A stretch of 5,353 nucleotides of DNA from Acidobacteriota bacterium (GTDB lineage: Bacteria > Acidobacteriota > Terriglobia > Terriglobales > Acidobacteriaceae): the NCBI GenBank assembly GCA_021798655.1, contig JAJZFE010000395.1, forward strand, positions 1 through 5,353. The letters run 5' to 3'. Every line of letters starts with the position of its first letter. Position 1 is the first letter of the stretch. Of the stretch, positions 1,179 to 2,159 are shown piece after piece. The position numbers and the translations under genes were made by a program. The notes beneath the pieces were generated by a model. The model did not search any database. It was not told the origin of the DNA and was given only the letters and a program-made list of their open reading frames with translations.

Positions 1179-2159
1179 ATGGAGAAAGACTATCTCACCG
1201 GCATTGCTAATGAAGCAGAAAAAGCCTTCCCTGCATTTTGGCCAAGCGTGTACCCACGCTCCTACAATGAGCCAGCAGGATTTTCATCACCAAGACATCT
1301 AGCAGCCGATCTCCTTGGTCTCTTGGTAAAGCCCCCTGTCAGGCAACAGGAACTTGGTGGCGTAAACCTGCTTAGCCAGTTTTCAACCTTCGCAGCTGTA
1401 TCGATGGCGGCGTTGAGTGTACCGGTCTTCTTCGTTGGACCCGACCTGTTACAGGCCTTGGCGTTGACCTCCCCACCCGATCGTCTTCGCTGGGACGAAA
1501 TGAAGTTGCCATTTGACGCATGCTCCTTCATGCTGCCGCGCGGATCACTCGTCCACCCAACGGTCGGCGAATGTCGCTACATTTGGTATGCGCGCCTAAA
1601 TAAGTCAACGCGTTACCAGCATCCGTTCGATAAAGCGACAACATTTGGGTTTGAAAGCGCACACTTCGTAGTTAGGATGTGCTTCGGAGGCGACGGGCAA
1701 GTTCGCGACATGATTTTCAACCAAATCCGCAATCCTACTTTCAGCCATTTAGGTATGAAAATGGAGTTGGTGACAGATGTAGAAATAGAAGATGAGGTTC
1801 CAGTCGATGCTTTTGATTCGCCGCCTGCGTACACATCGGCAGATGCAAAAGAACTTGAGTTGTTTTATTCGGCACTGACTCTTACTGTAAACCTACTACT
1901 CGTTATGGTTGAAAGGCCGCAGATCGTAGAACGCTCTAGGCCCACGGGAAAAAGAACCAAGAAAGGGACAGCGTTTTGGACACCCAACTTCATTGGTCAG
2001 ACATACAGACTCCCTAAAGCGGTCGAAACTTCTACCGAACCTTATTTCAAACTACGCCTTCATTGGAGGCGAGGGCATTGGCGCTCACAGCCCCATGGTC
2101 TACAAAGCAGTTTGAGACGTTTGGTATGGATTGAACCTGTCTTAGTCGGCGGACAATAG
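1179..2159 (+). CDS. AcrVA2-like protein (putative anti-CRISPR family)
   Basis: The 326-residue protein has no signal peptide or obvious enzyme motif. The start is secure: GGAGG (1170-1174) precedes ATG by four bases, and an in-frame TAG (1176-1178) lies directly before it. The C-terminal third resembles AcrVA2 of Moraxella bovoculi (about 322 aa, recalled from memory). Shared blocks are a hydrophobic helix then ERPQI (245-249; AcrVA2 AEPDI), RP plus basic residues (254-262), AFWTPNFIGQTY (265-276; AcrVA2 AFVTPSEPFIYQ), WRRGHW (296-301; AcrVA2 IRRGHW) and WIEP (317-320; AcrVA2 WQPA). A weaker match is LP...CSFMLP (110-120). AcrVA2 is reported to lower Cas12a levels by acting on its mRNA during translation. 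No Cas12a is visible here, so anti-CRISPR activity is only inferred. The N-terminal 100 residues are unrecognised. The gene is much AT-richer than its neighbours, suggesting transfer. No partner shares an operon with it: the next gene starts 125 bases on. Confidence 0.72.
   Translation: MEKDYLTGIANEAEKAFPAFWPSVYPRSYNEPAGFSSPRHLAADLLGLLVKPPVRQQELGGVNLLSQFSTFAAVSMAALSVPVFFVGPDLLQALALTSPPDRLRWDEMKLPFDACSFMLPRGSLVHPTVGECRYIWYARLNKSTRYQHPFDKATTFGFESAHFVVRMCFGGDGQVRDMIFNQIRNPTFSHLGMKMELVTDVEIEDEVPVDAFDSPPAYTSADAKELELFYSALTLTVNLLLVMVERPQIVERSRPTGKRTKKGTAFWTPNFIGQTYRLPKAVETSTEPYFKLRLHWRRGHWRSQPHGLQSSLRRLVWIEPVLVGGQ

What the first reader, a model, noticed from the sequence alone, without database searches (positions are those of the whole stretch)
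1179..2159. Distant AcrVA2-like protein in what looks like an acidobacterial chromosome
The gene has the length of AcrVA2 and a collinear set of C-terminal blocks: ERPQI after a hydrophobic helix, basic RP segment, AFWTPNFIGQTY, WRRGHW and WIEP. AcrVA2 is known as an inhibitor of Cas12a production through its mRNA, and relatives occur on mobile elements in hosts without Cas12a. A copy here raises the question of whether the family targets other nascent proteins. The N-terminal third is unlike the Moraxella protein, which could mean a different target. The resemblance is by eye and from memory of the AcrVA2 sequence.
Basis: partly seen in the sequence, partly recalled or inferred. Interest (0 to 1): 0.78.

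Follow-up and report, generated by a model that had tools for sequence, protein, structure and literature searches.

The report
Distant AcrVA2-family protein in an acidobacterium
An acidobacterium, from a class in whose sampled genomes no Cas12a was found, carries a very distant cousin of AcrVA2, a protein that shuts down Cas12a while it is being made, which suggests that this protein family may silence other targets too.

Summary

The gene is a low-GC3 insert between pgm and a Phd/PIN pair, in a slot where two Terriglobia relatives hold other genes. One relative sits on a conjugative Granulicella plasmid; others lie in viral contigs. Cas12a was found in 0 of 399 Terriglobia genomes (control genomes silent), and Cas1 in neither genome that carries a close relative.

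Best reading: mobile cargo that, like AcrVA2, reads a nascent peptide and lowers its mRNA, with a target other than Cas12a. Membership is shown; mechanism and target are inferred.

The parts
1179..2159 (+). AcrVA2-family (PF26125) protein, 326 aa
   Evidence: ORF; PF26125.1 and homologs; fold; profile
1170..1174 (+). GGAGG, Shine-Dalgarno-like, 4 nt before the ATG
   Evidence: read from the sequence
1836..1913 (+). codons of the long helix (residues 220-245) that ends in the ERP block; aligned with the LLWLCVAEPDI helix of AcrVA2
   Evidence: DSSP of model; hhalign
2049..2156 (+). C-terminal module, residues 291-326: HWRRGHWRSQPHG...VWIEPVLV; most conserved part of the family
2061..2078 (+). 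HWRRGH (residues 295-300); H295, R297 and H300 kept in all 80 aligned rows (many rows were fetched by a pattern that holds this motif)
2285..2533 (+). Phd/YefM-like antitoxin, neighbour in the same slot
   Evidence: TIGR01552; PF02604 just below its cut-off
2547..2945 (+). PIN-domain toxin-like protein (TIGR00305, PF13470), neighbour in the same slot
3..1109 (+). phosphoglucomutase (pgm), cut by the window edge: left flank of the variable slot
   Evidence: synteny
3010..4206 (+). carboxypeptidase-regulatory-like domain protein (cpd): right flank of the variable slot (the mechanical ORF starts at 2893)
   Evidence: synteny

Best explanation
The gene encodes a distant AcrVA2-family protein that arrived as mobile-element cargo. 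I think it works like AcrVA2: the variable N-terminal and middle part binds a peptide of a target protein while that protein is still on the ribosome, and the conserved C-terminal HWRRGHxR...WIEP module passes this on to loss of the target's mRNA. Its target is probably not Cas12a but another protein of the recipient cell, most likely a defence or stability gene that harms incoming plasmids or phages. Shown: gene, family, fold, foreign-looking composition, variable-slot position, relatives on a plasmid and in viral contigs, no Cas12a found in the sampled class. Inferred: arrival on a mobile element, peptide reading, mRNA loss, and any target.
For: Same Pfam family as named AcrVA2 proteins. Fold match to 7CI1/7CI2 alone. 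Profile match with silent controls. Mean identity between window clade and AcrVA2 side rises along the protein from 10% (residues 1-95) through 12% and 17% to 30% (291-326), which fits a changing recognition part and a shared effector part. AcrVA2 is reported to read the nascent Cas12a N-terminus and cause loss of its mRNA (review PMC13131331, passages). Gene GC3 0.49 against 0.75-0.88 in the four + strand neighbours measured. In two relatives with the same flanks the gene and the TA pair are missing and other genes fill the slot. A relative lies 825 bp from the 3' end of mobF, with one hypothetical gene between, on a Granulicella plasmid typed as conjugative. Among 74 neighbour ORFs of 8 viral loci there are matches to terminase, portal, DnaB, integrase and DNA-modification families. 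Cas12a in 0 of 399 genomes of the class; Cas1 absent from both genomes with a close relative.
Against: No assay. Residues 1-214 share only fold with AcrVA2, so the peptide-binding function may be lost or changed. Positions kept on the AcrVA2 side differ here (296 mostly I there and W here, 302 H there and R here, 305 W there and P/A here). The rise of conservation towards the tail may partly reflect how rows were found. The window holds no integrase, relaxase or phage gene, and the window protein has no tblastn match in 50,697 phage records. The Cas12a search rang in none of 14 control genomes; its only ring was a 51-residue remnant. The window's own genome is not held. That AcrVA2 lowers mRNA rests on a preprint that I could not read, seen through a review.
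Confidence: 0.42

Rival explanations
1. It is still an anti-CRISPR, aimed at a Cas protein other than Cas12a (for instance a type I or type II effector) met in other hosts of the element.
For: Family and fold of a proven anti-CRISPR. Two other Terriglobia genomes with more remote relatives do have Cas1 (G189, G336).
Against: The two genomes with close relatives (G001, and G140, which is Granulicella by its 115,221-base contig) and the two syntenic relatives G361 and G363 gave no Cas1 match. Cas3_C gave no match in the six genomes searched, but its controls ring in only 2 of 14. Cas9 and other effectors were not searched.
Confidence: 0.2
2. It is a resident defence or regulatory gene kept by the host beside a toxin-antitoxin pair, which silences proteins of invading phages or plasmids instead of host proteins.
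For: Chromosome-like setting next to Phd/PIN. The TAA 166 relative (L081) also sits in a 4.7 Mb scaffold; of 10 neighbour ORFs scanned 8 have no Pfam match and 2 are methylase-like.
Against: No PADLOC match at E <= 1. Relatives are frequent in viral sequence: 116 stretches of viral contigs, and 49 phage records match the Shewanella phage AcrVA2.
Confidence: 0.2
3. It is only a peptide-binding or chaperone-like protein with the AcrVA2 fold and no link to mRNA decay.
For: The C-terminal part modelled alone gives strands and no independent domain (pTM 0.34); the Foldseek search of the whole model lists no nuclease with a meaningful score.
Against: H295, R297 and H300 are kept in all 80 rows, the 20 AcrVA2-side rows included, which hints at an active role; many of the other rows were fetched by this motif.
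Confidence: 0.15
4. Chance resemblance, no homology to AcrVA2.
For: Direct BLASTP to the Shewanella phage AcrVA2 is weak (E 0.044); single-sequence and profile searches of the PDB did not list 7CI1.
Against: Fold, Pfam and controlled profile results.
Confidence: 0.02

Closest known systems
AcrVA2 of Moraxella bovoculi (PDB 7CI1, 7CI2)
   Same: Length, fold over model residues 27-326, PF26125.1 for its named relatives, HxRRGHW...G...W module.
   Different: 9-13% identity in the structural alignments; no profile signal in residues 1-214; HIRRGHWH versus HWRRGHWR; WQPA versus WIEP; its target Cas12a not found in the sampled class.
Acidobacterial relatives: TAA 166 scaffold (L081, identical to P0006) and Granulicella plasmid pACIX905 (L161)
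   Same: Same tree set (17 rows, SH-aLRT 98); 37% identity over 96% and 30% over 98% of the window protein.
   Different: L081 lies in a large scaffold among genes mostly without Pfam match (8 of 10); L161 lies beside plasmid transfer genes; the window copy stands with a TA pair.
PHROG phrog_6160 (AcrVA2 group) and phrog_15934
   Same: Window residues 297-324 match phrog_15934 at E 1.7e-4; phrog_6160 only at E 0.17. Of 20 A1 members 19 and 15 match them.
   Different: The six AcrVA2-side proteins scanned match phrog_6160 over nearly their whole length, E 1.8e-55 or better.
TTC5-mediated tubulin autoregulation in eukaryotes (PMC10403363; search listing and start of abstract only)
   Same: Nascent-peptide recognition that leads to mRNA decay, as a mechanism.
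   Different: No homology claimed or tested.

Membership tests
AcrVA2 family (PF26125) | Assigned to the same Pfam family as named AcrVA2 proteins | tested here: met
   P0001 PF26125.1; all 120 listed of 128 homologs of a named AcrVA2 are PF26125.1, among them ones whose source names them AcrVA2. The model is not in the held Pfam copy, so I could not rescore it.
AcrVA2 family (PF26125) | Fold of 7CI1/7CI2 | tested here: met
AcrVA2 family (PF26125) | Profile similarity over the C-terminal ~110 residues | tested here: met
   96.9% / E 1.3e-10 for the C-terminal part; 11 control comparisons at most 0.4%
AcrVA2 family (PF26125) | HxRRGH...G...W module | tested here: met
AcrVA2 family (PF26125) | Similarity of the N-terminal and middle part (peptide-binding part) | tested here: inconclusive
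   Fold aligns from residue 27, but the profile signal of residues 1-214 is 0.6%, E 0.1
AcrVA2 (functional anti-CRISPR) | Lowers Cas12a mRNA after reading its nascent N-terminus | not testable with these tools
   Needs expression experiments; mechanism taken from passages of PMC13131331
AcrVA2 (functional anti-CRISPR) | Host range that includes Cas12a-bearing cells | tested here: inconclusive
   0 of 399 Terriglobia with Cas12a, controls silent; window genome not held
Anti-CRISPR on a mobile element | Gene lies on a phage, plasmid or island | tested here: inconclusive
   Low GC3 and a variable slot suggest an insert, but no mobility gene lies in the window; relatives are on a plasmid and in viral contigs

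The most novel reading that the evidence does not exclude
PF26125 is a broad bacterial and phage family of nascent-peptide-guided mRNA silencers with a common C-terminal effector module and fast-changing recognition parts; AcrVA2 is one specialised branch, and the acidobacterial branch silences a protein that has nothing to do with CRISPR.
Probability: 0.33. Interest if true: 0.87.

Novelty: new variant of a known kind. Interest (0 to 1): 0.57.

Why it matters
Translation-dependent mRNA destruction by AcrVA2 is described as the first known case in prokaryotic defence, with an unknown decay machinery (PMC13131331, passages). If cells in which neither Cas12a nor Cas1 was found keep members of the same family on plasmids and in chromosomal slots, the mechanism should have other targets. 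The comparison names the module to mutate (H295, R297, H300, W317) and the part to swap (residues 1-214) in laboratory strains to test this directly.

Tried and rejected
PDB sequence searches with the window protein and with profiles A1 and A3 listed no AcrVA2, nor did single relatives P0020, P0018 and L144. The link came through fold and through the named Shewanella phage AcrVA2. Pfam, NCBIfam and PADLOC scans of the window protein gave nothing. tblastn of the window protein, L033, P0020 and L144 against the phage records gave no match. A single-protein scan of genome contigs found no relative; the profile scan did. Profile A3 rang in 1 of 3 jumbo phages. L046 was a poor query: its N-terminus matches ATPases. 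The C-terminal part modelled alone has pTM 0.34, so I did not search it against structures and make no claim on its fold. No terminator-like site and no clear terminal repeats around the gene were found. Paper searches for AcrVA2 with Acidobacteria and for PF26125 returned 0 papers; they cover only the open library held.

Limits of the counts: A1 holds 20 of the 21 proteins (P0007 left out); A2, A3 and A4 hold 34, 42 and 26 rows that I picked; the tree and one search use 80 picked rows; g_L081, identical to P0006, was counted under 'others', and P0016 under the window clade although the tree puts it outside the 17-row set. The tree has 33 open of 76 inner branches. One search covered 49 of 50 genomes asked (L145 not held), picked from 80 loci. 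In one search only 5 first-look candidates a genome were scored. A6 holds 74 of 113 neighbour ORFs. Motif conservation in loci fetched by pattern is partly by construction.

Full report
What is there. The window is a 5.35-kb piece with phosphoglucomutase (cut), the ORF in question at 1179-2159, a Phd-like antitoxin (2285-2533), a PIN protein (2547-2945), a carboxypeptidase-regulatory-like protein (3010-4206), a DUF4136 protein on the other strand and a piece weakly like a GDSL lipase. No whole genome is held. The ORF has a good ribosome site (GGAGG, 1170-1174; read). Its GC is 0.50 with GC3 0.49, against GC 0.60-0.67 and GC3 0.75-0.88 in the pgm, Phd, PIN and cpd frames around it.

Family. The protein search found 21 proteins at E <= 1e-3, the window's own among them, all with the precomputed Pfam label PF26125.1. 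The held Pfam copy lacks that model, and I only recalled its name, so I tested what it means. A search with the annotated AcrVA2 of Shewanella phage vB_SbaS_Y11, which matches the PDB AcrVA2 chain at E 1.5e-72, gave 128 proteins; the 120 listed are all PF26125.1, with source names such as 'AcrVA2 family anti-CRISPR protein [Moraxella catarrhalis]'. So the window protein and AcrVA2 share a Pfam family.

Sequence. BLASTP between the window protein and the Shewanella AcrVA2 is weak (E 0.044), and PDB sequence searches missed AcrVA2. Profile against profile, the window clade (A1, 20 rows) and the AcrVA2 side (A4, 26 rows) align at 96.3%, E 1.9e-9, 217 columns; the wider A2 gives 95.0%, E 3.8e-8, over the last 106 columns. 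One reversed and ten column-shuffled controls stayed at 0.1-0.4%. Cut into parts, the C-terminal stretch alone gives 96.9%, E 1.3e-10; residues 1-214 give 0.6%; and the protein without its last 37 residues gives 4.2%, E 0.0099.

Conservation. In 80 aligned rows, mean identity between window clade (17) and AcrVA2 side (20) is 10% in residues 1-95, 12% in 96-214, 17% in 215-290 and 30% in 291-326; within the window clade it is 43, 43, 48 and 65%. H295, R297, H300 and G307 are the same in all 80 rows; W317 in 78. Differences separate the two sides: W296 here (17 of 17), I there (17 of 20); R302 here (17 of 17), H there (19 of 20); Q304 here (17 of 17); P or A at 305 here (16 of 17), W there (20 of 20). 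Many of the 43 'other' rows were fetched by a pattern with HWRRGH, so their motif is no independent evidence; the AcrVA2-side rows were not fetched so. The tree (80 rows, quick method, 33 of 76 inner branches open) puts the AcrVA2 side in one set of 20 rows (SH-aLRT 100) and the window in a set of 17 (98) with acidobacterial and metagenomic relatives.

Distribution and setting. The profile found 137 genome stretches that encode a relative; the 80 kept lie in 7 phyla: Pseudomonadota 32, Cyanobacteriota 26, Bacteroidota 17, Verrucomicrobiota 2, and one each in Acidobacteriota, Thermodesulfobacteriota and Bacillota. A 2019 survey had AcrVA2 homologs in two phyla (PMC6739104, passage), and proteins clustering with AcrVA2 were noted in huge phages (PMC7162821, passage). 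In viral contigs 116 stretches encode relatives; among deposited phage records the window protein itself has no match, while the Shewanella AcrVA2 has 49. The window protein matches 49 plasmid records; the best is Granulicella tundricola pACIX905, typed as conjugative, with the gene 825 bp from the 3' end of mobF and one hypothetical gene between. In the class of TAA 166 relatives were found in 4 of 399 genomes.

Slot. Two genomes of that class, G361 and G363, have a pgm 82% identical and the same cpd gene (65% and 52%), but between them 3.8 and 5.4 kb of other genes and no tblastn match to the AcrVA2-like, Phd or PIN proteins. So the gene looks like accessory cargo in a variable slot. I saw no integrase or repeat that would name an element.

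CRISPR. Cas12a (TIGR04330) was found in 0 of 399 genomes of the class, but none of the 14 control genomes rang. Among 49 genomes bearing relatives 1 rang, a 51-residue N-terminal remnant. Cas1 gave no match in G001 (TAA 166), G140 (Granulicella, by its 115,221-base contig), G361 and G363, and matches in G189 and G336, whose relatives are more remote, and in G432; controls rang in 9 of 14. Cas3_C gave 0 of 6, controls 2 of 14. So in the genomes with close relatives I found no adaptation module and no Cas12a; Cas9 and other effectors were not searched, and completeness is not given for these handles.

Mechanism. AcrVA2 is reported to read the nascent N-terminus of Cas12a (LSKT) and cause loss of its mRNA; a crystal structure shows it with another Cas12a peptide; the decay machinery is unknown (PMC13131331, passages; the primary preprint was not held). 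AcrVA2.1 partly impairs Cas12a2 (PMC9811890, passage), and a meeting report says that AcrVA2 degrades the mRNA of tagged enzymes, allowing repression of Cas9 and Cas12f (PMC12908700, passages), so target choice seems separable from the silencing step. The pattern seen here, a diverged front part and a conserved tail, fits a retargeted silencer. This is an inference: neither peptide binding nor mRNA loss is shown for this branch.

Verdict. Membership of the AcrVA2 family: very likely (about 0.95). Retargeted co-translational silencer: about 0.4. The surprise is not the gene itself, which Pfam already groups, but how far the family reaches beyond Cas12a and how cleanly the sequence splits into a changing and a fixed part.

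Noticed in passing
L183 (G432, Bacteroidetes bacterium 37-13): A type V-A-like CRISPR remnant: the first ~51 residues of Cas12a stand directly before the C-terminal part of cas1 (profile positions 114-281), then a Cas2-like ORF and a repeat array (Cas2 and repeat type judged by eye). The same genome carries a remote AcrVA2-family relative, L140.
   Followed up: partly
L046 and L047, ORF 4989-5984 of L046: The HWRRGH...WIxP tail follows an N-terminus of about 80 residues that resembles AAA/SMC-type ATPases; possible fusion or artefact.
   Followed up: no
L111-L136 (several proteobacterial loci): Some relatives of about 520-660 aa (mechanical ORF starts) carry the same HWRRGH tail at the end of much longer proteins; their front parts were not analysed.
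   Followed up: no
L169, L171 (Pasteurella phage CFP3, Lactobacillus phage JCL1032): AcrVA2-family genes annotated as hypothetical stand next to or near the integrase in unrelated phages.
   Followed up: no
window 2285-2945: A Phd-like antitoxin and PIN toxin pair shares the variable slot with the AcrVA2-like gene; it gave no match in the two syntenic relatives.
   Followed up: partly
L016 200-1075: A relative with GC 0.35 in a contig of GC 0.61, an even sharper composition contrast than in the window.
   Followed up: no
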